Program-made: the position numbers and the translations under genes
In this document: positions 1 through 18,158 of the stretch, in pieces
Layout: each line of letters begins with the position of its first letter
Numbering within the stretch: the first letter of the stretch is position 1
Origin: Bacteroidota bacterium
GTDB taxonomy: Bacteria > Bacteroidota > Bacteroidia > Bacteroidales > WCHB1-69
NCBI GenBank assembly: GCA_019135895.1
Contig: JAGVVH010000482.1
Coordinates: 1-48,175 of the forward strand
DNA: 48,175 bases
Direction of reading: 5' to 3'
The notes under the pieces: model-generated
What the model was told of the DNA's origin: nothing
Database searches by the model: none
What the model saw: only the letters and a program-made list of their open reading frames with translations

Positions 1-160
1 TAAATGAATTGGGACGCTTGGTTTTGTTTTTATAGGCTTGGTTTTGTAGTTCTAGCCCTTTATTAAAGACCAGTCTACAACAGCCACAAACCTGATTGAA
101 ATATCTGATTTGGGCTCGGTTAGGTGATATCCTGGTCTTATAAGCCCTGAATATAATCAT
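1..160 (-). CDS. TnpB/OrfB-family (IS605/IS1341-type) RNA-guided nuclease, N-terminal part, cut by window edge
   Basis: The first 53 codons are visible and the gene continues beyond the left edge. The start MIIFRAYKTRISPNRAQ, followed by the CGCCRLVFNKGL segment, matches the helix-turn-helix N-terminal domain of OrfB_IS605/TnpB proteins, where a Y-[KR]-[FT]-R-[IL]-x-P-[TN] opening is followed by GxxRxVxN. TnpB is an RNA-guided DNA endonuclease that keeps IS200/IS605 elements in place. The ATG lies six bases after AAGGAC. No TnpA transposase is seen in the window, so this may be a stand-alone (IS1341-type) copy. The RuvC residues and any omega-RNA would lie outside the window. Confidence 0.72.
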   Translation of the reverse strand, partial: MIIFRAYKTRISPNRAQIRYFNQVCGCCRLVFNKGLELQNQAYKNKTKRPNSF

Positions 161-5575: not shown

Positions 5576-5627
5576 AAAAAAGGGGCGAGGACCAAGGCCG
5601 GATAGAAACGACCCTGGTCCTCACCCT
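5576..5627 (-). terminator. Intrinsic terminator of the RNA polymerase gene
   Basis: On the minus strand GGGTGAGGACCAGGG pairs with CCTTGGTCCTCGCCC (15 positions, with G-U pairs) and is followed directly by TTTTTT. It begins about 20 bases after the stop codon of 5648-8560. Confidence 0.92.
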
Positions 5628-5647: not shown

Positions 5648-8560
5648 CTATTCTCTGTTGTCTGCCATTACTGACAGATACAGAGACAGAAGTTGTGTTG
5701 CGAGCTGCAGGTAGTACTCGTCCTTCTTGTGGCCAACGCCACAATAGAGAGAACGAGCATCACCCTTCTTGCCGGAGAGTACGAACTGTTCTTCCAGCCG
5801 ATGCCACAACTCTCTGGTTATGGCAGCGGACTTCGGGATAACTCCGCCCTCGTCGTCTGACTCGATACCGAACTCACCTTGGGGTTGGCGTATTAACGGA
5901 TACGAAGCCCCAATAATGAACTCGATATCTCCCCAGATGTGCAAGGTCTTACGACTAAGCACGTTGACGAGGGCTTTCATCAGCATCTTGATTCTGGCGG
6001 GAGTAGCAGTGTATCCCAATAAATCTACGCACATGAAGTGCGCGATAGTTGGGACACACCCCCTCTTGAATATAGACTCTATTGGGAATAGAGCCTGTAT
6101 TCCGTTGGGGAGCTCATCTACCACAGATGACACGGTATACTTCATGCCATCTGGGGTAGAGATCTTACTACCCACTTCGCACCGGAACTCCGTAGCTATA
6201 ACAGCACGACGTCCCGATACTTCGATTACTTCACCTGGGTGTATTCCATCCCAGGTGACGGGTTCATCATGAAGGGGCATATGTACATACCCGATAAGCT
6301 CACCGGGTTGTACAGTCTGCCCTTCTTGGATAAGGAGCACATCTGCACGACGTGTCCTCATCCTAACAGATCCCAACTGGCAGGCTAGGTCTTTTGTGAT
6401 GATGCATCCATCACTATCAAGACCTGGACCTACTCCGAGTCCGAACTTAGCACCTAGATCGAACCATAGGCGCTCGTGGAATGTATCCACGTCATAGCCT
6501 AGGTCCTCTAGGTCTTGGTCATCGAGACATCCAGCGATCTTGCAACCGCCCTTGATTAGTGCGGTAGCTATCGGGAGTCTCTGACCAATCAGTTCGGTCT
6601 TGGCCGAGCAGATCCACTTGTTACGTGGGTCTGCATCCTCGATGCTGGAACCGCTGAATATCGCTATCTTAGATGCGATCTTCTGCGGCCCAGCGATCAG
6701 TTGGGAGATGTTGCCATCTACCATTTCCTCTAGTAGAGGAATGGTATTGGCAACGATCACTGGTAGCTGTGTTAGAGCATATAGCTCACACACAGCAGAG
6801 AGATCCCAATGTTTCTCTAGAAGAGCATTTGCATGCTCTAGAGAAATACTGGGAACTTGGGAGCGTAATACTGCTCCTAGATTCGGAGAGGTATATGCTA
6901 CGCGATACCAGGAGAAATCCAATTCCTGTCGGAACTCACCCTCTCGGGTGATATCCTCTGAGATTTCCCCAAGTACCTGCCTGACGGTGCCCATGATGGG
7001 CGCAAGTCCCTGCCCACCAAGGGCCGATAGCCTCTCGGTGATCTTCTCACAGAGAAGGGCATCCCACTCTGTAATCGATGGTTGTTGTTTGGAGGTGAGT
7101 ACTTTTACCTCTCCTCCAATATGGAGGACCTGTGTTTCGGTCTCCAAGACATTGGTCCCTACTAGGTGGCCCAACGATAGGGCCAGGACATTCCTACGGG
7201 TCCCGGCACCTTTCTTCGTCATGGGCCACCATACGAGTAGAGCCAGTTCATTTTCATCTAGCTCATCTCGATGGAGTACTGACTGGCTACTTCCATCTTT
7301 AGCGATGATGGGTCGCCAGTCGGGGGGGATATCCCTTACATCCTGGATTATCCTACATCCAGAAAGAGGAATATCTCCCAGTGAATACACACGGGAGAAC
7401 GCTAAGAACATATCATTCTCCCTAGCGGCCTCAACGGCAGCGTCCTCAATGACCTCGTTGAGGTTATGAGATGGCTCGCCATGGGCCACTGGTTGGCCGT
7501 AGAATGGCTCGATAGGGAGCAAGTCCCCATCGATGCCATCCAATCTTAGATCTTTTGATACAAGGCCATACAGGCCCCGTATCTGGCTCTTGAGGCCACG
7601 GGTGTATAACCCCATGAACTCAATCGCCTTTTGTAAGGTAAGGTCGGGGTTATCCACCCCTCCTTGTTGGAGTACTTGCTCTAATGATGCGTGAACAAGT
7701 CCCACATCATTGAGATGTACTCCAGCAATAAGACCTACCATGGGAGGTAGGTCACGGCACCCCTTAGCTGAGAGGGGTGCCTGTATTATTGCCGGTAGCC
7801 TTGAGAACCAGAATTTCTGATCCTCTACGTCCAGCAATTTTGCCTCGTGCTGCATGTACTGCACGAGGCGCGTAAGCAAGCCAGTGAAGACTTTCTGGGC
7901 CACAAGACCCTGAATAGCCTCCACCTTACCCTCAACCGGACTAAATGAGTCTAGTGAGGGTAGATACTCCTTGACATGCCGCTCCTTAGCGGCTGAGACA
8001 TGGAATGAGGGGATCTTCATCCATGCGACCCATGCTAGGTCGCCGTCGAAGTCCCCTCCTAACATTGCCCACACATCGGCGTTTATGCGTATAACGCCAT
8101 CCGGGAGTCCTTGCTCCCATTTGACGTGTACACGTAACCCCGATGTGGGAGAAATCAACGGGTAGCGCATCAGGGTTGCTGGCCCCTCGGGTCCCATTGA
8201 TGGACTGACATAGATGATCGGTATCGCAAGGTACCGATTATCTGGACCGCCTACAGCTACGCCATAAGCGGTCTTGATCTTGGAATTTCGTGAGGTAACA
8301 GTAGTAACCTCACGAAGACACCTTTTATAAAGGTGCCGGAATTGCGGGGATGATACATATCGATGAAGATATGCACTATCCCCCGTGTTCAGGGCGCGGA
8401 GGAGCCCATACTCCTCCGTGCCTAGAAACACTTCGCCTGACTTATACAGCCCGTGCTGGGCTTTTTCGTCCAGTACAGGGCTATACAGAAGCTCGGATAG
8501 CTCTTGCCACGGACCCGCGAAGTCCATGGCAAACGTACCGTAGGAGAACCCATTTCTCAT
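5648..8560 (-). CDS. Single-chain two-barrel DNA-dependent RNA polymerase with apparently permuted barrels (970 aa)
   Basis: The ATG follows AAAGGAG. Residues about 130-175 resemble the beta' double-psi barrel: MRYPLISPTSGL, then NADVWAMLGGDFDGDLAWV, with metal-binding aspartates D170, D172 and D174. Residues about 735-840 resemble the beta double-psi barrel: EGQTVQPGELIGYV, then VGSKISTPDGMKYTVSS. There K799 and K807 are eight apart, like K1065 and K1073 of E. coli beta (GDKMAGRHGNKG). In known fused or single-chain enzymes (beta-beta' fusions, YonO, QDE-1) the beta-like barrel comes first; here the order is reversed. It probably transcribes a class of phage genes. No sigma-like or other RNA polymerase subunit is seen in the window. 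A terminator follows. Confidence 0.87.
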   Translation of the reverse strand: MRNGFSYGTFAMDFAGPWQELSELLYSPVLDEKAQHGLYKSGEVFLGTEEYGLLRALNTGDSAYLHRYVSSPQFRHLYKRCLREVTTVTSRNSKIKTAYGVAVGGPDNRYLAIPIIYVSPSMGPEGPATLMRYPLISPTSGLRVHVKWEQGLPDGVIRINADVWAMLGGDFDGDLAWVAWMKIPSFHVSAAKERHVKEYLPSLDSFSPVEGKVEAIQGLVAQKVFTGLLTRLVQYMQHEAKLLDVEDQKFWFSRLPAIIQAPLSAKGCRDLPPMVGLIAGVHLNDVGLVHASLEQVLQQGGVDNPDLTLQKAIEFMGLYTRGLKSQIRGLYGLVSKDLRLDGIDGDLLPIEPFYGQPVAHGEPSHNLNEVIEDAAVEAARENDMFLAFSRVYSLGDIPLSGCRIIQDVRDIPPDWRPIIAKDGSSQSVLHRDELDENELALLVWWPMTKKGAGTRRNVLALSLGHLVGTNVLETETQVLHIGGEVKVLTSKQQPSITEWDALLCEKITERLSALGGQGLAPIMGTVRQVLGEISEDITREGEFRQELDFSWYRVAYTSPNLGAVLRSQVPSISLEHANALLEKHWDLSAVCELYALTQLPVIVANTIPLLEEMVDGNISQLIAGPQKIASKIAIFSGSSIEDADPRNKWICSAKTELIGQRLPIATALIKGGCKIAGCLDDQDLEDLGYDVDTFHERLWFDLGAKFGLGVGPGLDSDGCIITKDLACQLGSVRMRTRRADVLLIQEGQTVQPGELIGYVHMPLHDEPVTWDGIHPGEVIEVSGRRAVIATEFRCEVGSKISTPDGMKYTVSSVVDELPNGIQALFPIESIFKRGCVPTIAHFMCVDLLGYTATPARIKMLMKALVNVLSRKTLHIWGDIEFIIGASYPLIRQPQGEFGIESDDEGGVIPKSAAITRELWHRLEEQFVLSGKKGDARSLYCGVGHKKDEYYLQLATQLLSLYLSVMADNRE

Positions 8561-9233: not shown

Positions 9234-9647
9234 CTACGCAGAAACCTGCTTGACGAAGATCTCTATTTCCTGATCGATCTGATCGATCTTGGTCTCTAAC
9301 TCACTTGTTGGCTCGTGTTCCTGAATGAGCCAATGAAGCTCGTCCTGAAGTTCAAGCCTACGGAATACAAGCTTGAATCCGTCTGCTATTTGCCAGGTTG
9401 CACATACCTTGATTAGGTCATATAGCCACGAGTAGTGCGTAAGTGCATGTCTTATCCAGTTCAGTGCGGTGGAGAATGCTGGTGCGTCTGGATGCTGATG
9501 CACCCAGAACCTCGGGATGATGATTGGTTCATCAAACATTGGATTCCAGTCAGTGGTATATCCGTGGTACTGGATACCACGATATACCTTTACCGAGACA
9601 GTAGTGTCTCGGTCTGACATCTCGAACCTTCCGTATACGAATTCCAT
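9234..9647 (-). CDS. Hypothetical protein (137 aa)
   Basis: The start chosen is MEFVYGRFEMSD at 9647, ten bases after AAAGGAC; a start at 9674 has no site. The first half is beta-rich. The middle, STALNWIRHALTHYSWLYDLI then TWQIADGFKLVF, follows the pattern shared with several other small proteins here. The C-terminus is a charged helix (SELETKIDQIDQEIEIF), probably coiled coil. It is the first gene of this minus-strand block, so its promoter should lie in the gene-free region to its right. Confidence 0.68.
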   Translation of the reverse strand: MEFVYGRFEMSDRDTTVSVKVYRGIQYHGYTTDWNPMFDEPIIIPRFWVHQHPDAPAFSTALNWIRHALTHYSWLYDLIKVCATWQIADGFKLVFRRLELQDELHWLIQEHEPTSELETKIDQIDQEIEIFVKQVSA

Positions 9648-9674
9648 TCTTCTCACGGTCCTTTCTTTTCTCAT

Positions 9675-10504
9675 TCGCCAAGGGCAAAGCCGCGTAGCTT
9701 AGTAGTACGAAGCCCCCCATGTGCTTATAAAAAAGCATATGGTATAGGTATTCGTACACACAAAGCTACTTAGCATTCACCCGGGGGGAAAATCCCATCT
9801 CACCAGTCACATAGACAAGTAGACACATAAGAACATAGACATACGTACAGTAAGAACCTAAAGAACCTAAAGTATATCAAGCTCATAACACGATCTTAGA
9901 CAGTAGCTAATACATCTACGTTCATGTACTAGCTTATACGATATCTCAATAAGAGCTAATATCAGTTTCAATAATAACCAAATAAGCTCTAAAATGACCA
10001 AATCAGAAATGACTATATAAGCTCTAAAATGACCAAATAGAATAGCTTATACACACATATTATGTGTATAAATATTGCTTGCATATACAACTATCTTAGT
10101 CATGTATGCAGGAGTACCAAGGTGTTGGTATGCATACATGGCTTGTGATAGTGTCATGCAAGTGTTGGGTAAGGGGTATGTTTATGCATGATATTGGGTT
10201 ATGAATGTTGGTATGTTGTATGGTGTTGTTCCCCTACTGTTGGGTGTGGAGGGTACACCAATTGCATACTAACTGTTCATATCCCACAGAAACATCATAG
10301 CTTCCTCTCTAAGCCACGTATCCTATGTCTCGGGTGTCTTGTAACCAACTACACCTGAAACACGCTTAGAAAAAAAGCTAGAGGCCAAAGAATAAATCTC
10401 TTAGTGTACCCATAGATCACAGATCCTAGCTTATGCTAGTTCATATGATCTTAGATACATGAAGATATACTCTTTAGCCTACCCCTGGATAGGCATATGG
10501 TACG
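9675..10504. other. Gene-free AT-rich region, first part
   Basis: No convincing ORF on either strand. Present are a GCTACGCGGCTTTGCCC motif near 9683 ahead of 9234-9647 and a doubled stretch containing AAGCTCTAAAATGACCAAAT (about 9987 and 10020). Many AT-rich tracts, and a GCCTA/TAGGC hairpin near 10476-10495, are also seen. It may hold promoters for the polymerase operon or an origin; neither is shown directly. Confidence 0.45.
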
Positions 10505-10730
10505 GTTTCGACCCTGTGCTGATACAATGTATCAACAATGTTGGTATATACTACTACTACGTAGTAGTATATACATATGAGCTTTAGGTTGAACTTAGCT
10601 ATGTAAGCTCAACCTCTATGATACAAGAAGTCAAGTTTCGACCCTATGCTGATACAACATCATCGACAACTAAGTGCCGATAAATGCTTTCAGGGCCAAA
10701 ACCTGTCCATACTACTACTACGTAGTAGTA
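10505..10730. repeat. Duplicated GTTTCGACCCT...+ TACTACTACGTAGTAGTA palindrome module
   Basis: GTTTCGACCCTGTGCTGATA (10505) and GTTTCGACCCTATGCTGATA (10635) are near-identical 20-mers. Each is followed, after 46 and 77 bases, by the same perfect 18-bp palindrome TACTACTACGTAGTAGTA (10552-10569 and 10713-10730). Between them is a hairpin GGTTGA-CTTA/TAAG-TCAACC. This could be an origin-type array or a tandem operator. There are no genes here. Confidence 0.65.
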
Positions 10731-10750
10731 TGTGAGAGATACCCCCCTAA

Positions 10751-10881
10751 CCCCCCAAAGGGGGGAATATCTAAACTTGAGTATATGTTCTCTGTAAGAA
10801 CATATAACCAAATCTAGGATAACCCCCTAAATCCCCCTAAAGGGGGACTTCCTATCCCCCCCCTGCCCCCCCCAAGGGGGG
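10751..10881. repeat. Cluster of C-run/G-run hairpins
   Basis: Three hairpins of the form C5-8, short spacer, G5-6 lie at 10751-10765, 10833-10846 and about 10866-10881, with further C-runs between them. The minus strand, which is the sense strand of the surrounding genes, carries G-runs of 5 to 9 that could form G-quadruplexes. Confidence 0.6.
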
Positions 10882-10918
10882 TCAAGGTTCGCTACATGGG
10901 AATCCATTTATCGCCCAC

Positions 10919-10961
10919 AAAAAAGTAAAGTGGAGACACCCCAAGATATGGAGTATCCCCA
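10919..10961 (-). terminator. Second tandem intrinsic terminator of the 11-18.6 kb block
   Basis: On the minus strand TGGGGATAC pairs with GTGTCTCCA (G-U allowed) and is followed by CTTTACTTTTTT. It resembles the terminator at 11053-11101, and the flanking sequence (ACATGGG..AATCCATT) is also repeated, so the cassette is a tandem duplication. Confidence 0.7.
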
Positions 10962-11052
10962 ACTTTATCTCCCCATGTGAAATAAGGAATGGACGCTCAA
11001 AAAATATATGAGCGTAACAATGGACTCCACATGGGTAATCCATTGTTCGCTC

Positions 11053-11101
11053 AAAAAAAGGGTAAGGGGAGACACCAGCAACTTTCTGCTGATGCCTCCC
11101 C
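11053..11101 (-). terminator. Intrinsic terminator after 11108-11272
   Basis: GGGGAGGCATCAGCA pairs with TGCTGGTGTCTCCCC over 15 positions (two G-U) and is followed by TTACCCTTTTTTT. It starts seven bases after the stop of the last gene of the block. Confidence 0.92.
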
Positions 11102-11107
11102 CAGTCA

Positions 11108-11272
11108 CTAGAGTACACGAAGTGCTATTGCCCGGATCAAGAGACCCGGTGAGAGCAACACGAGCAGGATAGCCACCGAGACGATCCCGATGGTAATGCC
11201 TCCGATCCCCTTGCCCCGGTTCGACCATACCGAGGCAGGCAACTGTACCTGGCTTGTTAGCTTTACTACCAT
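11108..11272 (-). CDS. Small membrane protein (54 aa)
   Basis: The start MVVKLTSQVQ at 11272 follows AAAGGAGGAGAC; longer frames lack a site. One strong hydrophobic helix (GGITIGIVSVAILLVLLSPG) is followed by a short basic tail. Its start overlaps the end of 11266-11634, so the two are coupled. Confidence 0.68.
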   Translation of the reverse strand: MVVKLTSQVQLPASVWSNRGKGIGGITIGIVSVAILLVLLSPGLLIRAIALRVL

Positions 11273-11634
11273 GTCTTCGTCTCCTCCTTTAGTTCCTCCG
11301 TCTTGCGGAGGTATAGCAAGAAGATGTACCTCTCTGGAATTAACCAAGAGAACACGCTAGCGGCCGGGATCGCCAAGATCCCTACGATCCCCAGGAGCCC
11401 AATCATGGCGTCCTGGAGGACACCATGAATATGGCTACCCTCCTTGGTAGCCATCATCCCTACGATGAGGACGAACCCGGCGGAGAGCTGCGTGATTGCA
11501 GCCGGGATCATCAGGACCCAGAAGACGATGTAGGCCAAGATAACTCTGGCCCACATGACGATCTCCTCTACGAGCCAGAGGAGATCCAAACATCCCTCGC
11601 GAAATCCATTCTTGAAGTCGAGCATGAACTTCAT
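11266..11634 (-). CDS. Membrane protein with about three helices (122 aa)
   Basis: The ATG follows AGAGGGG. Hydrophobic stretches lie at about residues 28-50, 52-62 and 75-100, followed by a charged C-terminus (LRKTEELKEETKTW). Together with the overlapping small membrane gene it forms a two-gene unit bounded by terminators on both sides. Function unknown; it may act on the host envelope. Confidence 0.68.
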   Translation of the reverse strand: MKFMLDFKNGFREGCLDLLWLVEEIVMWARVILAYIVFWVLMIPAAITQLSAGFVLIVGMMATKEGSHIHGVLQDAMIGLLGIVGILAIPAASVFSWLIPERYIFLLYLRKTEELKEETKTW

Positions 11635-11698
11635 TTCAAACCCCTCTCATCGTGAGACTCCCCAGTTAGACTCCCCATGGGGAACAGCTCCGCACTTG

Positions 11699-11755
11699 AA
11701 AAAAGAGAGAGCAGAGAGAGACACGGCTTGGTAGCTGCCGCATCCCTCTCTGCTC
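11699..11755 (-). terminator. Intrinsic terminator after the first SSB gene
   Basis: On the minus strand GAGCAGAGAG pairs with CTCTCTGCTC, extended inward by GATGCGGC/GCCGTGTC, and is followed by TCTCTTTTTTC. It lies about 30 bases after the stop of 11788-12255. Confidence 0.88.
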
Positions 11756-11787
11756 AACGGAAGAGAACTGTTCTGATCAACGGAGAA

Positions 11788-12255
11788 CTACTCGGATCGG
11801 ACCGCTTTCGTCTGACGAGTGGCCGGCTTCTTGGTAGCCGGCTCGGTCGTCGCAGCTGGCTTGGCCGGCGGAGCCTCGGGCTCTGGCTCGTCGTCGTCGT
11901 CGATCACGGAGCTCGGCCCGCTCTTGGGGCCGAACGTGACCGTGTCCGCGACGAGCGTCCAGCTCTTGCTGCGGTAAACCTCACCTCCCTCAAGCACCAG
12001 CTCCTTGACGTAGCTCTCCATCCTGCCGTTCACGATGGCGAACGAGCCCTTGCGGAGGTGGTTCTTGCATGCCTCTGCGACACCGCGCCAGGCCCGCACC
12101 GCGATCCAATCGGTGACCCTCTCACCGCTCTGGTTCCGGTAAGGCCGGTCCACAGCGACTGAGAACGTGCACATAGGGACACCGCCCGAGGTGACCTTCA
12201 GCTCGGGGTCTTGGCCCAAGTGCCCAGCAATTACCACGCTCATCATCGATGACAT
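11788..12255 (-). CDS. ssb: Single-stranded DNA-binding protein, copy 1 (155 aa)
   Basis: The start MSSMMSVVIAG at 12255 follows GAGAGGAG. The OB-fold is clear: VVIAGHLGQDPELKVT, MCTFSVAVDRPYR, TDWIAVRAWRGVAEAC, then LRKGSFAIVNGRMES and SWTLVADTVTFGPK. A Pro/Ala/Asp-rich tail follows but ends KAVRSE, not the acidic DDxIPF tip that recruits partner proteins in bacterial SSBs. It should coat single-stranded DNA during phage replication. A diverged second copy is at 14632-15048, and both share a structured leader. Confidence 0.9.
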   Translation of the reverse strand: MSSMMSVVIAGHLGQDPELKVTSGGVPMCTFSVAVDRPYRNQSGERVTDWIAVRAWRGVAEACKNHLRKGSFAIVNGRMESYVKELVLEGGEVYRSKSWTLVADTVTFGPKSGPSSVIDDDDEPEPEAPPAKPAATTEPATKKPATRQTKAVRSE

Positions 12256-12261
12256 GCTGCA

Positions 12262-12349
12262 TCTCCTCTCGGCCTGCGTTGGACAAGGCATCTAGGACGC
12301 CCAAGCCAACGTCAGGCGGTGGCGGTTCAGCCGTATCTCCATGTGGCGG
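12262..12349 (-). promoter_or_regulatory. Structured leader of ssb copy 1
   Basis: GCCTG-A-CGTTGG pairs with CCAACG-CAGGC (11 bp, one bulge). It encloses a second helix GGGCGT/ATGCCT, and the structure ends at the GAGAGGAG ribosome binding site. About 85 bases are nearly identical to the leader of ssb copy 2 (15058-15145), more alike than the coding parts. Control by SSB binding is inference. Confidence 0.65.
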
Positions 12350-12464
12350 TAGCTTGTTTTATTGCACTTGTCGCCCCATGAGAGATAGGTAATTCAAATA
12401 TGATACCTCCTCCTCACAGTAAATTCACATAACAAGTGAAAAACCACTTCGAGACGGATGGGAA

Positions 12465-12641
12465 CTACTCATCTAACCACTCGGGTTCCAACGTCATCTC
12501 ATAGAGTTCGTCCTCTGAGAAGCCATACCCACGTGCCTCCTCAATCATTTCTGAGAGGAGGTGCTCCTGCCAGCAGGAGTTGTGGCAGAAGTATCCCTCC
12601 CAGGGGATCACGGGCTTGCCACAATACTTGCACTTTCCCAT
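12465..12641 (-). CDS. Small zinc-ribbon protein (58 aa)
   Basis: The start MGKCKYCGKPVIPW at 12641 follows CGGGAG; the upstream ATG at 12668 has no site. C-x2-C (KCKYCGK) and C-x3-C (FCHNSC) suggest a zinc site, followed by an acidic helical tail ending PEWLDE. Function unknown. Confidence 0.65.
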   Translation of the reverse strand: MGKCKYCGKPVIPWEGYFCHNSCWQEHLLSEMIEEARGYGFSEDELYEMTLEPEWLDE

Positions 12642-12712
12642 TACTTTGCTTTGCTCCCGACTCCCCATGAGGGGTATAGTGGACCGTAATTATGGCCCAG
12701 GCTAATTGCTAT

Positions 12713-12740
12713 GGGCAGTTTAACGACATGCCCAGGTCGT
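12713..12740 (-). repeat. Intergenic H-type pseudoknot element, copy 1
   Basis: On the minus strand: stem 1 ACGAC/GTCGT, and stem 2 GGGCA (inside the stem 1 loop) with TGCCC, with loops CT and TAAAC. It begins about nine bases after the stop of 12750-13028. Confidence 0.72.
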
Positions 12741-12749
12741 GAAGATAGG

Positions 12750-13028
12750 TCACCTTTCTAGCGCAGCACTTAGTGCACCACGCCATACTTCGCTATTCAG
12801 GCGGGAGGGGAGTAAGACGAGATCAGGGTCAAACCTAATGGCCCTCTCGATCCCCTCCAGATAGCACACGTGCTCTCCTTCCACGCTCAGGTGGTCTTCG
12901 TCATAGCCGTACACCTGTAATACTACCTCTCCTTTCAACGCAACACAGAACCCGAAGAAACCAACTCCATCGACATATTCTTCTTCCTTCTCGTCCTCCC
13001 AACTCACTCGCTTAATTTCCACAAGCAT
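12750..13028 (-). CDS. Hypothetical protein (92 aa), possible local family member
   Basis: The start MLVEIKRVSWEDE at 13028 follows GGAAGGATTC. A beta-rich first half (FFGFCVALKGEVVLQVYGY) is followed by YLEGIERAIRFDPDLVLLP and then WRGALSAALER. The second part aligns in pattern with 13727-14077 (VLEGVEAMLKWFPGMV...WWQLAFD) and 18325-18609 (ALARVEKWLRRFPSVV...WNQMLFAAELL). Confidence 0.65.
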   Translation of the reverse strand: MLVEIKRVSWEDEKEEEYVDGVGFFGFCVALKGEVVLQVYGYDEDHLSVEGEHVCYLEGIERAIRFDPDLVLLPSRLNSEVWRGALSAALER

Positions 13029-13099
13029 GTTAGAATCCTTCCACGAACTCCCCATGAGGGGTATAGTGGACCGTAATTATGGTCCAGGCTAATTGCTAT

Positions 13100-13127
13100 G
13101 GGCAGTTTAACGACATGCCCAGGTCGT
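13100..13127 (-). repeat. Intergenic pseudoknot element, copy 2
   Basis: Same 28-base core as copy 1 (ACGAC/GTCGT; GGGCA/TGCCC), just after the stop of 13134-13457. The flanks (ATTAGCCTGGRCCATAATTACGG side) are also shared with copy 1, so the whole spacer was duplicated. Confidence 0.72.
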
Positions 13128-13133
13128 GGAGAG

Positions 13134-13457
13134 CTAGAATGGGTGGTCCAACCCCCAGCTCTCCACCCCCCTTCGGAATGGGTTGTACTCGTCAACAGAC
13201 GAGTAAAAGGCAACGGGCACCCTGTACCCGTGTAGCTCAGCCACTAGGGTGAGTTCCTCGCTCTCGTTATGACTTCGGTAGCACTTCCCCACGACTTCGA
13301 AGACGGAGACGGTAACGTCTCCTACCTCTTTGTCCCCTTCGCCCCCGTATCGCAACACAAGATCTTGTGCGATACGGAGCGCCTTCTTAAGGGAAGCCGT
13401 CTCAGCTTCCCTTAAGATTCCTCTGAACGCGAACACGACCACCTTGTACTTGTACAT
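13134..13457 (-). CDS. Hypothetical protein (107 aa)
   Basis: The start MYKYKVVVFAFRG at 13457 follows AAAGGAGTGCC. Strands alternate with a basic helix (SLKKALRIAQDLVLRYGG), then VTVSVFEVVGK and ELTLVAELHGYRV. The length and layout resemble the neighbouring small proteins. No family recognised. Confidence 0.65.
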   Translation of the reverse strand: MYKYKVVVFAFRGILREAETASLKKALRIAQDLVLRYGGEGDKEVGDVTVSVFEVVGKCYRSHNESEELTLVAELHGYRVPVAFYSSVDEYNPFRRGVESWGLDHPF

Positions 13458-13472
13458 GGTGGCACTCCTTTT

Positions 13473-13615
13473 ACTCCCCATAGGGAGTTGAAATGCACTC
13501 TCCATACGGAGAGTGTTTAGAGAGTAAAGAACTACCCTCTACCAAGCAGACTATTTCTAATCTGCTTGATGGAGGATTCTGCCACCCAGCAAGCTGTGTG
13601 TCTTCTGCCACCCAG
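13473..13615 (-). repeat. Composite intergenic hairpin element, copy 1
   Basis: Reading the minus strand: two CTGGGTGGCAG anchors (13605-13615, 13579-13589), hairpin CAAGCAGA/TCTGCTTG (13543-13568), an AGAGGGTAG... stem, hairpin CACTCTCC-GTAT-GGAGAGTG (13496-13515), then ACTCCC-TATG-GGGAGT next to the ribosome binding site of 13134-13457. The same order recurs upstream of other genes. Confidence 0.68.
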
Positions 13616-13645
13616 CAAGAGGATTAATTGCTCATAGCCACTCTG

Positions 13646-13673
13646 GGGCAGTTTTACAACTTGCTCAGGTTGC
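13646..13673 (-). repeat. Intergenic pseudoknot element, variant (GCAAC type), copy 3a
   Basis: Stem 1 is GCAAC/GTTGT, different in sequence from the main type but still pairing. Stem 2 is GAGCA with TGCCC (one mismatch). It lies directly beyond copy 3b. Confidence 0.6.
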
Positions 13674-13691
13674 TTGCCGGCTAAGTGCTAT

Positions 13692-13719
13692 GGGCAGTTT
13701 AACGACATGCCCAGGTCGT
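13692..13719 (-). repeat. Intergenic pseudoknot element, copy 3b
   Basis: Main type (ACGAC/GTCGT; GGGCA/TGCCC), seven bases after the stop of 13727-14077. Confidence 0.72.
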
Positions 13720-13726
13720 GAAGAGA

Positions 13727-14077
13727 TCACCCTTCTTTCAGGTGATCAACTTGCGTACATATCCTGATTATCTCATTCACCTTCCCTTCCCACCACACCT
13801 CGCCGTGACAGTAGCAGTCAAAAGCAAGCTGCCACCACTGCTCCCCTTCCACGTGGACCATGCCAGGGAACCACTTCAGCATTGCTTCCACCCCTTCGAG
13901 CACTCGCGAGCTGTACGAGGTCATCACGAGGGTGTTGTCCCCCTCGATGGTGCCGACTCGCGAGGAGTCCACGTGCAGCACGGTGACGTTCTTCTTGAGA
14001 TCGGGATCCCAAGAGCAGACCACCGCCCGCCGATCCCGGTCGAAGAGCACGGTAACGCCTTGCACTAGCTTGGTCAT
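13727..14077 (-). CDS. Hypothetical protein (116 aa), possible local family member
   Basis: The start MTKLVQGVTVLFD at 14077 follows AAAGGGTC. Beta strands come first (AVVCSWDPDLKKNVTVLHV), then VLEGVEAMLKWFPGMV and QWWQLAFDCYCHG, matching in pattern 12750-13028 and 18325-18609. Function unknown. Confidence 0.66.
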   Translation of the reverse strand: MTKLVQGVTVLFDRDRRAVVCSWDPDLKKNVTVLHVDSSRVGTIEGDNTLVMTSYSSRVLEGVEAMLKWFPGMVHVEGEQWWQLAFDCYCHGEVWWEGKVNEIIRICTQVDHLKEG

Positions 14078-14097
14078 GGTTAGATGACCCTTTCTTG

Positions 14098-14243
14098 ACT
14101 CCCCATGGGGGGAGTTACAATGCACTCTCCATACGGAGAGTGTTTTAGAGAGTAAAGAACTACTCTCTTCCAGGCAGACTAGACATAATAATCTGCCCGA
14201 AAGAAAGCTCTGCCACCCAGATTGTGTGTCTTCTGCCACCCAG
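14098..14243 (-). repeat. Composite intergenic hairpin element, copy 2
   Basis: Same order as copy 1: two CTGGGTGGCAG anchors, hairpin GGCAGA/TCTGCC (14173-14197; stem bases changed relative to copy 1 but still paired), hairpin CACTCTCC/GGAGAGTG, then the CCCCATGGGG palindrome next to the start of 13727-14077. Confidence 0.68.
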
Positions 14244-14264
14244 AGAAGGGGATAAGTGCTTATT

Positions 14265-14328
14265 GACTATGGTTTAACCCTGAATAAGGAATTCCGACTA
14301 GTAGCTTCCTTATACAGGAACCATAGTC
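14265..14328 (-). repeat. Long hairpin with conserved loop, copy 1
   Basis: Outer stem GACTATGGTT/AACCATAGTC, inner stem CCTG-ATAAGGA/TCCTTAT-CAGG, loop with TTCCGACTAGTAGC on the plus strand. It lies 11 bases after the stop of 14340-14501. A copy at 16577-16644 keeps the loop but has unrelated paired stems. Confidence 0.68.
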
Positions 14329-14339
14329 AACAGGCCTCA

Positions 14340-14501
14340 TTAAGGAGCATTCTGCTGCTCCTTGATGCCCTTGGCGATTGCCCGGCCCATTAGGTAGGCA
14401 TAGGCAATGGCCATGGGGGCCATGATCGCGATGAGGACCCCAGCGATCAGGTAGCTGATCATCTGGGCGATCCACATGGCGATAGAGGTCACCTTCTTCA
14501 A
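14340..14501 (-). CDS. Small membrane protein (53 aa), TTG start
   Basis: ATGAAAGGAAGTGATATT followed by TTG at 14501 fits the ribosome-binding arrangement used by its neighbours. The ATG at 14519 is part of that site and is a less likely start. One long hydrophobic segment (WIAQMISYLIAGVLIAIMAP, then AIAYAYLMG) could span the membrane once or twice. The tail is basic. Function unknown. Confidence 0.6.
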   Translation of the reverse strand: MKKVTSIAMWIAQMISYLIAGVLIAIMAPMAIAYAYLMGRAIAKGIKEQQNAP

Positions 14502-14519
14502 AATATCACTTCCTTTCAT

Positions 14520-14547
14520 GAGTAGTTTTACAACTTGCTCAGGTTGC
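14520..14547 (-). repeat. Intergenic pseudoknot element, variant (GCAAC type), copy 4a
   Basis: Stem 1 GCAAC/GTTGT; stem 2 GAGCA with TACTC (one mismatch). It sits just upstream of the ribosome binding site of 14340-14501. Confidence 0.55.
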
Positions 14548-14565
14548 TTGTCGGCTAAGTGCTTT

Positions 14566-14594
14566 GGGCAGTTTAACGACATGCCCAAGGTCGT
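14566..14594 (-). repeat. Intergenic pseudoknot element, copy 4b
   Basis: Main type with a 3-base first loop (CTT). It lies about 37 bases after the stop of 14632-15048. Confidence 0.7.
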
Positions 14595-14631
14595 GAGAGC
14601 TACCAATCGGGGTAGTCCAACCCCCAGCTCT

Positions 14632-15048
14632 CTATCCCTTTTCGGGACGGTTGGTAGTGCTCGACTCGGGAGGAGGCACCGGCTCAGGCTCGGCGGGGCA
14701 CGCGGTGGCGGTGCTCACGCCAGGACCCTTCGGCCCGAACGTGACCTCGTCCGCAACGAGCGTCCAGCTCTTGAACCGCCTCACTTCCCCTCCTTCAAGG
14801 ACCAGGTCCTTGACGTAGGATTCGAACCTACCGGCGACCACCACGAATGCCCCCTTCTTGAGGCACTTCTGGCAGGCCTCTGCGACACCGCGCCAGGCCC
14901 TCACCGAGAACCAGTCTGTTTCGTGTTCCCCGTAAGGCCGGTCCACAGCGACCGAGAACGTGCACATAGGGACACCGCCCGAGGTGATCTTGATCTCGGG
15001 GTCGTGGCCCAGATGTCCCGCTATTATCACCTGTTGCATCGATGCCAT
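14632..15048 (-). CDS. ssb: Single-stranded DNA-binding protein, copy 2 (138 aa)
   Basis: The ATG lies after GAGAGGAGATGGATGCAAG. The OB-fold matches copy 1 closely: VIIAGHLGHDPEIKIT, MCTFSVAVDRPYG, TDWFSVRAWRGVAEAC, LKKGAFVVVAGRFES, SWTLVADEVTFGPKG. The tail is short and proline/serine-rich (PAEPEPVPPPESSTTNRP) and lacks an acidic hydrophobic tip. Two SSBs in one phage operon suggest specialised roles or hetero-oligomers; this is inference. Confidence 0.9.
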   Translation of the reverse strand: MASMQQVIIAGHLGHDPEIKITSGGVPMCTFSVAVDRPYGEHETDWFSVRAWRGVAEACQKCLKKGAFVVVAGRFESYVKDLVLEGGEVRRFKSWTLVADEVTFGPKGPGVSTATACPAEPEPVPPPESSTTNRPEKG

Positions 15049-15057
15049 CTTGCATCC

Positions 15058-15145
15058 ATCTCCTCTCGGCCTGCGTTGGACAAGGCATCTAGGACGCCCA
15101 AGCCAACGTCAGGCGGTGGCAGTTCAGCCCTCTCTCCATGTGGCG
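15058..15145 (-). promoter_or_regulatory. Structured leader of ssb copy 2
   Basis: The same long hairpin as upstream of ssb copy 1 (pairing blocks at 15068-15079 and 15103-15114). Only a few bases differ over about 85, all outside the stems. Confidence 0.65.
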
Positions 15146-15192
15146 GTTACTCCGTGATAAACACCCTACGGAGAGCGTCGGCTAAGTGCTTT

Positions 15193-15221
15193 GGGCAGTT
15201 TAACGACATGCCCAAGGTCGT
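15193..15221 (-). repeat. Intergenic pseudoknot element, copy 5
   Basis: Main type with the 3-base CTT loop, in the spacer between 15324-15596 and ssb copy 2. A GCCCAGTA/TACTGGGC hairpin (15230-15259) lies next to it. Confidence 0.7.
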
Positions 15222-15277
15222 GGGGTTGTGCCCAGTAAGTGGTAATGCACCTACTGGGCAAGGGACTGGAATGAAAT

Positions 15278-15308
15278 TAGGGAGCTACTTTCCGAAGGTA
15301 GCCCCCTA
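15278..15308 (-). terminator. 11-bp hairpin after the stop of 15324-15596
   Basis: On the minus strand TAGGGGGCTAC pairs with GTAGCTCCCTA (G-U allowed). Only a weak T-content follows (ATTTCATTCC), so it may be a partial terminator or a stability hairpin. Confidence 0.45.
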
Positions 15309-15323
15309 AAATCGGTTGTGATC

Positions 15324-15596
15324 CTAGGACTGCTGCTGGAGGCTGGCCCACAGGGCCTGACCCTCCTTGGCGTCTCGGATCACGCCGATGACGAAGAAAT
15401 GTCCCTTACGGTACACGCACCGGAAAGCGACAATCTCCTCGTCCCCAGAGGGGAGGGCGGTCTTACTACGAACCACCATCTTCTGTCCCGAGTTAGGGCA
15501 GACGACGGTGATATCGTACAGAACCACGTCCGTCCCCTTGATGGTAACGGGGCGGACGTGGGTCACCTTCCCCCACACGAACATGAGGTTCGCCAT
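15324..15596 (-). CDS. Small beta-rich hypothetical protein (90 aa)
   Basis: The ATG follows AAAGGAGGTG, a near-perfect site. The protein is almost all strands (FVWGKVTHVRPVTIKG, VVLYDITVVCPNSG, KMVVRSKTALPSG, HFFVIGVIRDAKEG), which suggests a small barrel, perhaps OB-like. It is next to an SSB gene, so nucleic-acid binding is possible but unproven. Confidence 0.68.
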   Translation of the reverse strand: MANLMFVWGKVTHVRPVTIKGTDVVLYDITVVCPNSGQKMVVRSKTALPSGDEEIVAFRCVYRKGHFFVIGVIRDAKEGQALWASLQQQS

Positions 15597-15670
15597 GAAT
15601 TTTCACCTCCTTTCTGAACTCCCCATGGGAAGTCTAGTAGACCCGTATTAGGGTCCGGGCTAATAGCAAT

Positions 15671-15698
15671 GGGCAGTTTAACGACATGCCCAGGTCGT
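15671..15698 (-). repeat. Intergenic pseudoknot element, copy 6
   Basis: Main type, eight bases after the stop of 15707-16075. The spacer beyond it resembles those of copies 1 and 2. Confidence 0.72.
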
Positions 15699-15706
15699 GA
15701 GGTCTA

Positions 15707-16075
15707 CTACCAGGGGATCTTCACCTCCCCATCGCGCTCGTAAAGCCCCCACTGATACAAATACAGATGATGAGGGCCTGGACGCCTTAGCATGTGATAC
15801 GGTGGTAAGTCCTCCATCTCATCAGACATAGCCGATGCAATGCTGAATGCCCTCCAGCGCTTAATGCGCTCCTCCTCCTCCGAAGAAGAGAAGGAGGAGT
15901 AGTACTCAATGTCCATCCCGACGTTCATTTTATTGATTCCGGTTCTTATCAGGTAGACGTTCGGCCTGTGGGGTATCTCACCCCACGAGCTGTTGTTGTT
16001 GGACCAGCGGTACCACTTTCGCCGCTGGCCACCCCTTCTTCCCGTGTTGCTTAAAGAGACGTGCTTATATAGCAT
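15707..16075 (-). CDS. Hypothetical protein (122 aa)
   Basis: The start MLYKHVSLSNTGRRG at 16075 follows GGAGGACG; longer frames run through the repeat element and are not credible. A basic N-terminus (RRGGQRRKWYRW) is followed by an acidic middle (SSSEEEERIKRWRAF) and a tyrosine-rich end (HHLYLYQWGLYERDG). No family recognised. Confidence 0.6.
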   Translation of the reverse strand: MLYKHVSLSNTGRRGGQRRKWYRWSNNNSSWGEIPHRPNVYLIRTGINKMNVGMDIEYYSSFSSSEEEERIKRWRAFSIASAMSDEMEDLPPYHMLRRPGPHHLYLYQWGLYERDGEVKIPW

Positions 16076-16091
16076 TGTCGTCCTCCATCGT

Positions 16092-16208
16092 CTCCCCATA
16101 GGGGAGTTACATTTCACTCTCCATACGGAGAGTGTTTTAGAGAGCGCTACGCACCCTCTACCAAGCAGACTATTTCTAATCTGCTTGATGGAGGATTCTG
16201 CCACCCAG
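16092..16208 (-). repeat. Composite intergenic hairpin element, copy 3
   Basis: CTGGGTGGCAG anchor (16198-16208), CAAGCAGA/TCTGCTTG hairpin (16162-16187), CACTCTCC/GGAGAGTG hairpin (16115-16134) and CTCCCC-TATG-GGGAG next to the site of 15707-16075. Confidence 0.68.
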
Positions 16209-16209
16209 T

Positions 16210-16236
16210 GTGAGGTGACTAGCCAAGCCACCTCAC
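16210..16236 (-). terminator. Hairpin overlapping the 3' end of 16219-16440
   Basis: GTGAGGTG pairs perfectly with CACCTCAC and spans the stop codon. No T-run follows. Confidence 0.45.
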
Positions 16237-16440
16237 AACCCATTCTCTGACCCGCAGGGCTTCCCTACGGGCCAGAAAATCGGACTCATGGGGACCGAGA
16301 TCCCCAATGAGCCCGGTGGCGAGCACGTCGTCATACGGACCCTCTCCTAACCTGAATTGCAGGTTAGGGAAGATCTTGACGAGGTACTCGCCAACCTCCT
16401 GGCTGGGCACAAAGATAGTGCCCATAACCTTATCTCTCAT
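16219..16440 (-). CDS. Small hypothetical protein (73 aa)
   Basis: The start MRDKVMGTIFVPSQ at 16440 follows GTAGGTGAC. It contains EVGEYLVKIFPNLQFRLG, then an acidic turn and a basic helix (LARREALRVREWVVRW). The helix-FP piece is like that of the local family. Function unknown. Confidence 0.6.
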   Translation of the reverse strand: MRDKVMGTIFVPSQEVGEYLVKIFPNLQFRLGEGPYDDVLATGLIGDLGPHESDFLARREALRVREWVVRWLG

Positions 16441-16467
16441 TTTGTCACCTACTTTCCGAGATGAATT

Positions 16468-16559
16468 AGAGGAGTACGTCTCCTCTACCAAGCAGACTAT
16501 TTCTAATCTGCTTGATGGAGGATTCTGCCACCCAGATTGTGTGTCATTTGCCACCCAGC
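16468..16559 (-). repeat. Composite intergenic hairpin element, copy 4
   Basis: CTGGGTGGCAG and CTGGGTGGCAA anchors, CAAGCAGA/TCTGCTTG hairpin (16489-16514) and a perfect AGAGGAG-ACGTA-CTCCTCT hairpin in place of the weaker stem seen in copy 1. It lies upstream of 16219-16440. Confidence 0.66.
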
Positions 16560-16576
16560 AAATGGAGAATTGCACA

Positions 16577-16644
16577 TAGCCACAATAGGGTTTACACAGA
16601 AGAATTCCGACTCGTATCTTCTTCTGTATAAGCTACCGTGGCTA
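16577..16644 (-). repeat. Long hairpin with conserved loop, copy 2
   Basis: Outer stem TAGCCAC/GTGGCTA, inner stem ACAGAAGAA/TTCTTCTGT, loop containing TTCCGACTCGTATC. It lies six bases after the stop of 16651-16878. Stems differ from copy 1 (14265-14328) but the loop is conserved, which suggests a functional RNA. Confidence 0.68.
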
Positions 16645-16650
16645 ACTGCC

Positions 16651-16878
16651 TTAGTTGAGACAGGATCCCAATTGGGTCTTGGGCATATCTGCCTCTACTA
16701 CGGCCATAACGTACCTAGCCAGCAGTGCCTTAAGGTCCATCTTTTCATCAGACAGACCTGCCAGCACATCGAGCCTGCTTTGAGCAAGCTCAACCGCATA
16801 CCAGGTACGCATGCACCGGTGGCAGTATTCTCCATATCCGTAGGGGATAGGAGAACCACACTGCCTACAGTGCAGCAT
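16651..16878 (-). CDS. Small zinc-ribbon protein (75 aa)
   Basis: The ATG follows AAAGGAGGTTAG. The N-terminal HCRQCGSPIPYGYGEYCHRC has two C-x2-C pairs typical of a zinc ribbon. A helical part follows (LAQSRLDVLAGLSDEKMDLKAL, AVVEADMPK). Possible nucleic-acid or protein adaptor; no family named. Confidence 0.7.
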   Translation of the reverse strand: MLHCRQCGSPIPYGYGEYCHRCMRTWYAVELAQSRLDVLAGLSDEKMDLKALLARYVMAVVEADMPKTQLGSCLN

Positions 16879-16896
16879 TTACTAACCTCCTTTCTG

Positions 16897-16924
16897 GGGC
16901 AGTTTTACAACTTACTTAGGTTGC
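16897..16924 (-). repeat. Intergenic pseudoknot element, variant (GCAAC type), copy 7a
   Basis: Stem 1 GCAAC/GTTGT is kept; stem 2 (AAGTA with TGCCC) is poor. Probably a degraded copy. Confidence 0.45.
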
Positions 16925-16942
16925 ATGTCGGCTAATTGCTTT

Positions 16943-16970
16943 GGGTAGTTTAACGACATGCCCAGGTCGT
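16943..16970 (-). repeat. Intergenic pseudoknot element, copy 7b
   Basis: Main type; stem 2 is GGGCA/TACCC with one mismatch. It starts six bases after the stop of 16977-17387. Confidence 0.62.
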
Positions 16971-16976
16971 GGAGAT

Positions 16977-17387
16977 CTACTCGCCGTAGATGGCGGGGGC
17001 GGCCTTGCGGAAGGCCCTCGCCAGGGCGGTGACCGGGAAGCCCTTTACCTCCTCCGCCCATGAGGGCCTACGGTAGAACTTAGCATCTCCGCTGCCGAAG
17101 ATGCGGGCGTACAGGTCGTGCATGTGCCCGTTTGCACACAGTTGCATAACGGGCATGTAGCCCGCCGCCCGGCACGCCGGGTGGAAGGGCTCGTAGGTAG
17201 CGTCGGCCTCGTCCTCCAGGTAGAGGTACGGGTCCAGCCGTCGCGCTATCTCATCTGGCTCCAACGCCGCGTAATCGCACTTGGAGAGGTCGAGCAGGAG
17301 GTCTATGGAGAGGGCAAGGTAAGCCCTCGGGGAATAGCATACACGCTGCGCTCGCCGGCTGAGATCGCTTGCCACGTTCGGATCCAT
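16977..17387 (-). CDS. Hypothetical protein (136 aa)
   Basis: The start MDPNVASDLSRRAQR at 17387 follows AAAGGGAAC. The 100-codon open extension upstream covers another gene and a pseudoknot, so I reject it. The protein is helical and mixed-charge, with CYSPRAYLALSIDLLLDLSK and EPDEIARRLDPYLYLEDE, then CANGHMHDLYARIFGSGDAK. Function unknown. Confidence 0.65.
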   Translation of the reverse strand: MDPNVASDLSRRAQRVCYSPRAYLALSIDLLLDLSKCDYAALEPDEIARRLDPYLYLEDEADATYEPFHPACRAAGYMPVMQLCANGHMHDLYARIFGSGDAKFYRRPSWAEEVKGFPVTALARAFRKAAPAIYGE

Positions 17388-17455
17388 GATGTGTTCCCTT
17401 TGCATGCCCCATTGTGGGGGCAGTAAGATATCCCTTTCTATGAAAGGGGTTGAGT

Positions 17456-17484
17456 GGGCAGTTTCCAAGTCATGCCCAGGACTC
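17456..17484 (-). repeat. Intergenic pseudoknot element, diverged (GAGTC type), copy 8
   Basis: Stem 1 is GAGTC/GACTT (a different sequence, still fully paired with one G-U), stem 2 is GGGCA/TGCCC, loop 3 is GGAAAC. It follows the stop of 17498-17665 by 13 bases. This is strong evidence for the fold. Confidence 0.7.
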
Positions 17485-17497
17485 ACGTGCCCCGCTC

Positions 17498-17665
17498 CTA
17501 GACAACAGGAGCGAGGCAGAGCACCTGGAGCCCAGCTGCGACCAAGTAGGCCGCAACAATGGCCCCAAGCGCTCGCAAACGGTAACGCATGGGGACTCCG
17601 AAGAGCCCCCAATACACCACCGTCATTCCTACACACCAGTACAGGATCGCACTGGTATATGGCAT
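17498..17665 (-). CDS. Small membrane protein (55 aa)
   Basis: MPYTSAILYWCVGMTVVYWG at 17665 follows GGAAAGGAGGTG, a near-perfect site. Two hydrophobic helices (about residues 5-24 and 31-55) are joined by a basic loop (PMRYRLRA). A tiny membrane gene like those at 11108 and 14340. Confidence 0.7.
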   Translation of the reverse strand: MPYTSAILYWCVGMTVVYWGLFGVPMRYRLRALGAIVAAYLVAAGLQVLCLAPVV

Positions 17666-17702
17666 GAATTTCACCTCCTTTCCTCATTTAGGGTAGGGAA
17701 GA

Positions 17703-17766
17703 AGTTATCCCTCCTCTTGGCAGACTAAAGAAGATAATCTGCCAAAGGGAAGAATCTGCCACCCAG
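17703..17766 (-). repeat. Composite intergenic hairpin element, copy 5
   Basis: CTGGGTGGCAG anchor (17756-17766) and hairpin TTGGCAGA/TCTGCCAA (17717-17745; stem changed but paired). It lies upstream of 17498-17665. Confidence 0.62.
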
Positions 17767-17775
17767 CAGAGAGGG

Positions 17776-18154: not shown

Positions 18155-18158
18155 CGGG

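What the first reader, a model, noticed from the sequence alone, without database searches (positions are those of the whole stretch)
5648..8560. Phage RNA polymerase with its two catalytic barrels in reversed order
The DFDGD motif (D170/D172/D174), the hallmark of the beta' barrel, is only 170 residues from the N-terminus. The beta-type barrel, with two lysines exactly eight apart (K799, K807, as in GDKMAGRHGNKG of beta), is near the C-terminus. In beta-beta' fusions, YonO and QDE-1 the lysine barrel comes first. The protein starts after a clear ribosome binding site and ends before a strong terminator, so the order is not an artefact of a wrong start. A circularly permuted single-chain RNA polymerase would be a new architecture for the two-barrel superfamily as far as I know.
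Basis: partly seen in the sequence, partly recalled or inferred. Interest (0 to 1): 0.93.

Follow-up and report, generated by a model that had tools for sequence, protein, structure and literature searches.

The report
Phage RNA polymerase with swapped barrels
A bacterial virus from a metagenome carries one 970-residue protein that is likely an RNA-making enzyme whose two halves of the active centre would stand in the opposite order to that in the related enzymes compared here, which would be a new layout for one of the oldest enzyme families.

Summary
The protein is an orphan: the only match among 5.8 billion proteins is a near-identical cluster representative (2 substitutions). The window is a fragment of a large phage related to Bacillus phage KLEB27-3 and Moorella phage MTATph1. 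Relatives of such phages encode polymerase-like proteins of about 2,250 residues in which two conserved lysines precede DxDGD (30 of 30). A profile of their lysine region hits only that family and this protein among 19,310 frames; its match here, 744-791, lies just before K799/K807, after DFDGD. The reverse search of the 5.09-Mb assembly finds this stretch alone. So homologous segments stand in reversed order; a permuted single-chain two-barrel polymerase is the best reading (0.6). Not settled: both structure predictions failed, cellular-beta profiles put the lysines in register without significance, and the matched stretch looks like a sandwich-barrel domain that beta' also has. New: the adjoining contig (exact 114-bp end overlap) carries a DCDGD gene directly before a beta-type lysine-barrel gene, so this phage likely has a second, split RNA polymerase.

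The parts
5648..8560 (-). CDS of the 970-aa protein (P0001), stop included
   Evidence: open frame 975 codons
8569..8576 (-). Shine-Dalgarno-like AAAGGAGA, nine bases before the ATG
   Evidence: read from the sequence
7991..8179 (-). Residues 128-190: predicted A (beta'-type) barrel around the catalytic loop, with RYP at 132-134
   Evidence: profile of 49 phage A regions matches 128-198 at 31.9 bits, but the profile rows were picked by the motif; masked -1.0; Pfam RdRP E=0.097 and 0.011, below cut-off; phrog_2987 E=0.051 at 127-178
8039..8053 (-). DFDGD, residues 170-174
6011..6445 (-). Residues 706-850: predicted B (beta-type, lysine) barrel
   Evidence: alignment to the relatives' lysine region; fold not confirmed
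6188..6331 (-). Residues 744-791: stretch matching the relatives' lysine-region profile; sandwich-barrel-like in the model
   Evidence: 17.0 bits, 0 of 2000 shuffles; HHalign probability 95.3; only family plus this protein among 19,310 frames
6140..6166 (-). K799 to K807, proposed catalytic lysines
   Evidence: in register with cellular beta GDK...K at the profile's best place in the protein, 4.2 bits, 1 of 2000 shuffles reaches; four of 379 ORFs score higher
5583..5626 (-). Intrinsic-terminator-like hairpin, 18-bp stem and T run
1..114 (.). End overlap: identical to the inverted first 114 bases of contig C359, which carries the split second RNA polymerase

Best explanation
Window 5648-8560 (minus strand) encodes a 970-residue phage protein with the RNA-polymerase motif DFDGD at residues 170-174 and, after it, a stretch at 744-791 that matches the lysine region standing before DxDGD in polymerase-like proteins of related phages; it is likely a single-chain two-barrel RNA polymerase whose barrels come in reversed (A then B) order. 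Predicted working: D170, D172 and D174 of the A barrel would hold the catalytic magnesium ions, K799 and K807 of the B barrel would contact the incoming nucleotide and the RNA end, and the two barrels would pack face to face as in other two-barrel polymerases. The more than 500 residues between them would hold the elements that follow A (bridge helix, trigger loop) and then the domain that precedes B; no profile confirmed either. The enzyme would transcribe genes of the phage. The phage also carries, on the adjoining contig, a DCDGD gene directly followed by a beta-type lysine-barrel gene, so it likely uses two RNA polymerases, as P23-45 and the giant phages do with virion and non-virion enzymes. 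Fusion of such an A-then-B gene pair could give a reversed single chain; that origin is inference.
For: Search of the protein against 100 virus records: two of the 69 records chosen as capsid or portal relatives (or MTATph1/KLEB27-3, 71 in all) match, G103 at 720-789 (E=7e-5) and G108 at 744-788 (E=7e-4), each inside a ~2,260-aa ORF. In 30 of 30 homologues of that ORF a K-x6-K-x-T lies 472-642 residues BEFORE DxDGD; in the 19 aligned, both lysines are invariant. Profile of that region: 17.0 bits at 744-791, 0 of 2000 shuffles; best of 379 ORFs of both contigs; only family plus this protein in 19,310 frames that include 12 rpoC and 25 rpoB; HHalign probability 95.3. Reverse search of the 5.09-Mb assembly with P0004: one match at E<=10, residues 745-789, 42%. 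Cellular beta profile has its best place in the protein at 786-834 with K799/K807 on the two lysines. No K-x7-K before DFDGD.
Against: Both AlphaFold2 runs failed for the barrels. Cellular beta profiles are in register but weak: 4.2 bits with 1 of 2000 shuffles reaching it and four of 379 ORFs above it; bacterial-only core -0.8 bits, 47 of 2000. The relatives' lysine region is itself not recognised as cellular beta by HHalign (1.7); I call it B by position and lysines. MAFFT puts the relatives' GEK lysine on K807 in two alignments and on K799 in another. Profiles of the relatives' A region and of the regions before B, after A and between do not match. The matched stretch resembles a lipoyl/biotinyl-type sandwich, a fold that beta' also carries (recalled), and the beta' C-terminal profile matches it weakly (12.9). 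KLEB27-3 and MTATph1 themselves gave no match.
Confidence: 0.6

Rival explanations
1. The protein is only a beta'-like chain: an A barrel near its N-terminus and, at 741-791, a sandwich-barrel domain of the beta' C-terminal kind; K799/K807 are chance, and the lysine barrel comes from a separate subunit, for example the 389-aa gene on contig C359 of the same phage.
For: HHalign gives the stretch a weak match to the beta' C-terminal region (probability 12.9, E=0.0022); the model of 741-780 is lipoyl/biotinyl-like; a beta-type gene exists in the same phage; cellular beta profiles are not significant on the protein.
Against: The match to the pre-DxDGD lysine region of the relatives is far better (95.3), and that profile hits none of 12 rpoC genes; an HMM of beta' after the A barrel finds nothing in the protein; the C359 gene stands next to its own DCDGD gene.
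Confidence: 0.2
2. A two-barrel protein of reversed order that is not a transcriptase: a primase-like, RNA-templated or inactive enzyme.
For: The superfamily includes RNA-templated enzymes and PolD (PMC7824862 and PMC4996933, passages); the best Pfam trace is RdRP, below cut-off.
Against: The nearest relatives by the B segment are phage proteins resembling virion RNA polymerases; DFDGD is intact.
Confidence: 0.1
3. DFDGD is a chance or other metal-binding motif and the protein is not a two-barrel polymerase.
For: Outside the motif the A side has no significant profile match, and no curated family is reached.
Against: The same chain carries a stretch specific to the polymerase-like family of related phages, and RYP stands at the usual distance before DFDGD.
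Confidence: 0.06
4. The usual order after all: an unrecognised lysine barrel lies before DFDGD.
For: Lysine barrels can be divergent.
Against: Only 169 residues precede DFDGD and the A barrel itself needs about 40 of them; no K-x7-K there; the lysine-region profile gives only the C-terminal match.
Confidence: 0.04

Closest known systems
Polymerase-like proteins of about 2,250 residues in related Firmicutes phages (P0004-P0033; Bacillus phage KLEB27-3 gp034 is a more distant one)
   Same: The stretch 744-791 is specifically similar to their lysine region; the phages share distant capsid and portal proteins with the window.
   Different: They are over twice as long, and the lysine region precedes DxDGD (30 of 30); the A-region profile does not match this protein.
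Single-chain two-barrel RNA polymerases: YonO, QDE-1, phi14:2 gp66, P23-45 gp64 and gp96 (PMC5467207, PMC10770324; passages and one section read)
   Same: Both catalytic motifs in one chain; about 100 kDa like YonO.
   Different: In the structures compared in PMC10770324 the connector runs from DPBB-B to DPBB-A, i.e. B first; YonO's order is recalled.
Split RNA polymerase on contig C359 of the same phage (206-aa DCDGD gene, 389-aa GDKLATRHDHKG gene)
   Same: Gene order A then B; VIALNPDIAYIMGADCDGD resembles VIRINADVWAMLGGDFDGD.
   Different: Two genes; similarity to the 970-aa protein is at the edge of chance.
Multisubunit RNA polymerases of giant phages (phiKZ type; PMC7824862, passages)
   Same: Two-barrel chemistry; often two enzymes per phage.
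   Different: Barrels in separate genes.
Archaeal PolD DP2 (PMC4996933; passages read)
   Same: Two double-psi barrels in one chain.
   Different: DPBB-1 is the B-like and DPBB-2 the aspartate-bearing one, the usual order; it makes DNA.

Membership tests
Two-barrel RNA polymerase superfamily | DxDxD/DFDGD loop in barrel A | tested here: met
   DFDGD at 170-174; motif level only, the flanks add little
Two-barrel RNA polymerase superfamily | Barrel B with two conserved basic residues | tested here: inconclusive
   stretch before K799/K807 matches the relatives' lysine region; the lysines are in register with cellular beta but below significance
Two-barrel RNA polymerase superfamily | Two double-psi beta-barrel folds facing each other | tested here: inconclusive
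   AlphaFold2 mean pLDDT 34 and 41
Two-barrel RNA polymerase superfamily | RNA synthesis | not testable with these tools
   needs purified protein
Known single-chain two-barrel enzymes (YonO, QDE-1, gp66, P23-45 type) | Both motif regions in one polypeptide | tested here: met
   one 970-aa ORF, at motif and profile level
Known single-chain two-barrel enzymes (YonO, QDE-1, gp66, P23-45 type) | B before A | tested here: not met
   lysine-region match at 744-791 after DFDGD 170-174
~2,250-aa polymerase-like proteins of related phages (P0004-P0033) | Lysine-region homology | tested here: met
~2,250-aa polymerase-like proteins of related phages (P0004-P0033) | Length over 2,200 and lysine region before DxDGD | tested here: not met
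   970 aa; order reversed
Multisubunit giant-phage RNA polymerases | A and B barrels in separate genes | tested here: inconclusive
   both motif regions in one ORF, but a beta'-only reading is not excluded; the C359 pair does have them in separate genes

The most novel reading that the evidence does not exclude
A naturally permuted single-chain RNA polymerase, A barrel first and B barrel last, is one of two RNA polymerases of a large phage whose other enzyme is a compact split pair (206-aa aspartate-barrel gene directly before a 389-aa lysine-barrel gene). The reversed chain arose by fusing genes that stood in A-then-B order, so the barrel order shared by the enzymes compared so far is not required for catalysis.
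Probability: 0.45. Interest if true: 0.9.

Novelty: new variant of a known kind. Interest (0 to 1): 0.74.

Why it matters
In the single-chain two-barrel polymerases described in the passages I read (P23-45, QDE-1, phi14:2 gp66, and PolD for DNA) the lysine barrel comes before the aspartate barrel. A natural enzyme with the opposite order would show that the active centre tolerates permutation, bear on how the two barrels were first joined in the ancestor of RNA polymerases, and give a small natural test case. The same phage with a split A-then-B gene pair would offer the likely raw material of such a fusion. A paper on a reversed order was looked for and not found in six searches of one open-access library that lacks most subscription papers.

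Tried and rejected
Direct homologue searches gave nothing beyond the near-identical P0002: 5.8 billion proteins by whole chain (7996 candidates scored) and by residues 90-240 (641 candidates); phages, plasmids, viral contigs (13), 98 related genomes (18), PDB sequences, NCBIfam, PADLOC. Pfam and PHROGs gave only sub-threshold traces (9, 15, 61).

After a filter (frame of 350 or more codons, [RK]-x-P-like motif upstream) 49 stayed (85): 26 complete ORFs and 23 cut ones; none of the 26 has the motif in the first 250 residues with 450 or more after it (137). Some of the 49 (L077, L017) look like chance hits and stayed in the profile. The scan for GGDFDGDLA found four contigs (49), one of them L098, the weak G155 hit.

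Alignments with whole relatives scattered the fragment and were not used for folding. The genome-contig scan found three loci of the relatives' family, the viral scan seven. Tetranucleotide likeness hinted that C359 belongs with the window; the exact end overlap is the better evidence. Contigs C266, C408 and C358 were judged another phage by composition of 8-17 kb stretches.

Full report
1. What is there. The ORF at 5648-8560 lies on the minus strand and encodes 970 residues from an ATG. AAAGGAGA stands nine bases upstream, and an 18-bp hairpin with a T run follows the stop. The open frame extends only five codons above the ATG. DFDGD is at 170-174. Of two K-x7-K pairs, at 241 and 799, only 799/807 (GSKISTPDGMK) resembles the beta motif, and neither lies before DFDGD.

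2. Where it comes from. The window is a whole contig, C392, of a 5.09-Mb assembly in 579 contigs; same-genus genomes have 1.9-2.6 Mb, so the bin holds extra material. It carries terminase, portal, major-head and amidase genes. Terminase, portal and capsid are 24-32% identical to those of Moorella phage MTATph1 (177 kb), Bacillus phage vB_BauM_KLEB27-3 (217 kb) and Acinetobacter phage ME3 (235 kb). The window is therefore likely a fragment of a much larger genome.

3. An orphan protein. The only match in 5.8 billion proteins is P0002, the representative of a cluster of 11 member sequences, which differs at H145N and A165S. Nothing was found in phages, plasmids, viral contigs or 98 related genomes.

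4. The relatives' polymerase-like protein. KLEB27-3 gp034, annotated 'structural protein', has RYP and then ADYDGD at 1933 in 2434 residues (Pfam RNA_pol_Rpb1_2 E=0.015, below cut-off). Capsid and portal alignments brought in 158 related viral loci, some from the same contigs. The protein was searched against 100 records in two calls of 50: 69 related records, MTATph1, KLEB27-3 and 29 GGDFDGD contigs. In the first of 50 matched at E<=10: G103 (720-789, E=7e-5) and G108 (744-788, E=7e-4), each inside an ORF of about 2,260 residues. In the second 3 of 50 matched, all on the DFDGD side and all from contigs picked by that motif, so they prove little. MTATph1 and KLEB27-3 did not match. G103 appears to be the 194,705-bp contig of Oceanobacillus profundus DSM 18246 (same length and coordinates).

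5. Order in the relatives. Thirty homologues of the G103 protein were found. In 30 of 30 a K-x6-K-x-T lies 472-642 residues before DxDGD; gp034 has such a pattern too but aligns poorly there. In the 19 aligned, K1319, G1324, E1325, K1326 and the ADSDGD at 1842-1847 are invariant. I call the lysine region B by its position and lysines; HHalign did not recognise it as cellular beta (probability 1.7), while the relatives' A region matched beta' weakly (11.4).

6. The C-terminal match is specific. An HMM of the relatives' lysine region (gp034 left out) scores 17.0-17.3 bits at 744-791; none of 2000 shuffles reaches it, the best at 5.6. It is the best of 379 ORFs of the two contigs, next 3.9. Over 19,310 frames of 370 sequences (4.3 Mb, partly redundant, with 12 rpoC and 25 rpoB genes) it hits only the relatives and this protein. 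HHalign gives probability 95.3, E=2.3e-8, for 744-787. In reverse, P0004 against the whole assembly finds one place at E<=10, residues 745-789 of this protein (42%, E=0.0018). So a segment that lies before the aspartate motif in the relatives lies after it here. The same test on the relatives' A region, and on the regions before B, after A and between, gave no match.

7. The lysines themselves. A profile of cellular and phage beta sequences (28 aligned, the C359 gene among them) has its best place in the protein at 786-834, with K799 and K807 on the two catalytic lysines, but at 4.2 bits: 1 of 2000 shuffles reaches it and four of 379 ORFs score higher, one of them the C359 gene itself. A bacterial-only core profile gives the same register at -0.8 bits, 47 of 2000 shuffles. 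MAFFT aligns the relatives' GEK lysine with K807 in two alignments and with K799 in another. The register is plausible, not proven.

8. The rival. AlphaFold2 with seven relatives modelled only 741-780 with fair confidence, as a lipoyl/biotinyl-like sandwich. PMC7824862 (passages) says that beta barrels of cells and giant phages carry an inserted sandwich-barrel-hybrid domain, which fits a B barrel, and that YonO-like enzymes lack it. Beta' also has such domains (recalled), and the beta' C-terminal profile matches weakly by HHalign (12.9). A beta'-only protein is thus the main rival. Against it: the far better match to the pre-aspartate region, no rpoC among the HMM hits, and no hit of the beta' post-A HMM in the protein.

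9. A second polymerase next door. Bases 1-114 of the window equal the first 114 bases of contig C359, inverted; at E<=0.001 the first 240 bases match nothing else in the assembly except four 30-36-base repeats, also on C359. The right end overlaps nothing. C359 (38.6 kb) carries RecA, a DNA polymerase III alpha-like protein and a ribonucleotide reductase and, in a row, a 206-aa gene with ALNPDIAYIMGADCDGD and a 389-aa gene with GDKLATRHDHKG, whose ATG follows the first gene's stop after one base. The latter is Rpb2_6 (E=7.4e-12) and resembles beta of giant phages. The former has no match in Pfam, PHROGs or the phage records, so its A-barrel reading rests on the motif and its neighbour. Comparison with the 970-aa protein is at the edge of chance: A reaches 3 of 300 shuffles against residues 1-300 and 5 of 300 against the whole, B 2 of 300 against 651-970 and 26 of 300 against the whole. 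The gene order A then B there suggests how a reversed fusion could arise (inference).

10. Comparison with the known. In the enzymes compared in PMC10770324 (passages and one section read) the connector runs from DPBB-B to DPBB-A; PolD has the same order (PMC4996933, passages). YonO is a single chain of about 100 kDa (PMC5467207, abstract start and passages); its barrel order is recalled. All other papers were seen as search listings only. No paper on a reversed order was found in six searches.

11. Verdict. Observation confirmed. A reversed-order single-chain polymerase is the best reading at 0.6: the segment order is supported by independent searches in both directions; the fold and the catalytic role of K799/K807 are not shown.

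Noticed in passing
window 24496-28849, plus: Genes that by eye resemble glycosyltransferases and methyltransferases lie between the amidase and the terminase, inside the structural module. No family search was run on them.
   Followed up: no
window 9500-18800: Seven families of direct repeats of 60 bases or more; four or five intergenic copies share GGGCAGTTTAACGACATGCCC, a possible promoter or operator element. Two single-strand-binding-protein genes (11788-12291 and 14632-15048, minus) look like a duplication.
   Followed up: partly
contigs C266, C408 and C358 of the same assembly (L312, L313, L311): Further phage-type RNA polymerase pieces (Rpb2_6 and Rpb1_2 matches) with GC near 0.30 and a composition unlike the window: probably another giant phage in the same bin.
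   Followed up: partly
L010 35003-42307 (KLEB27-3 gp034); L307, L308, L314-L320, L345-L347: An unnamed family of ~2,250-aa proteins in Oceanobacillus, Virgibacillus, Paenibacillus and Bacillus phages or plasmids, called 'hypothetical' or 'structural', has the marks of single-chain RNA polymerases and an exonuclease-like N-terminus (by eye): likely virion RNA polymerases.
   Followed up: partly
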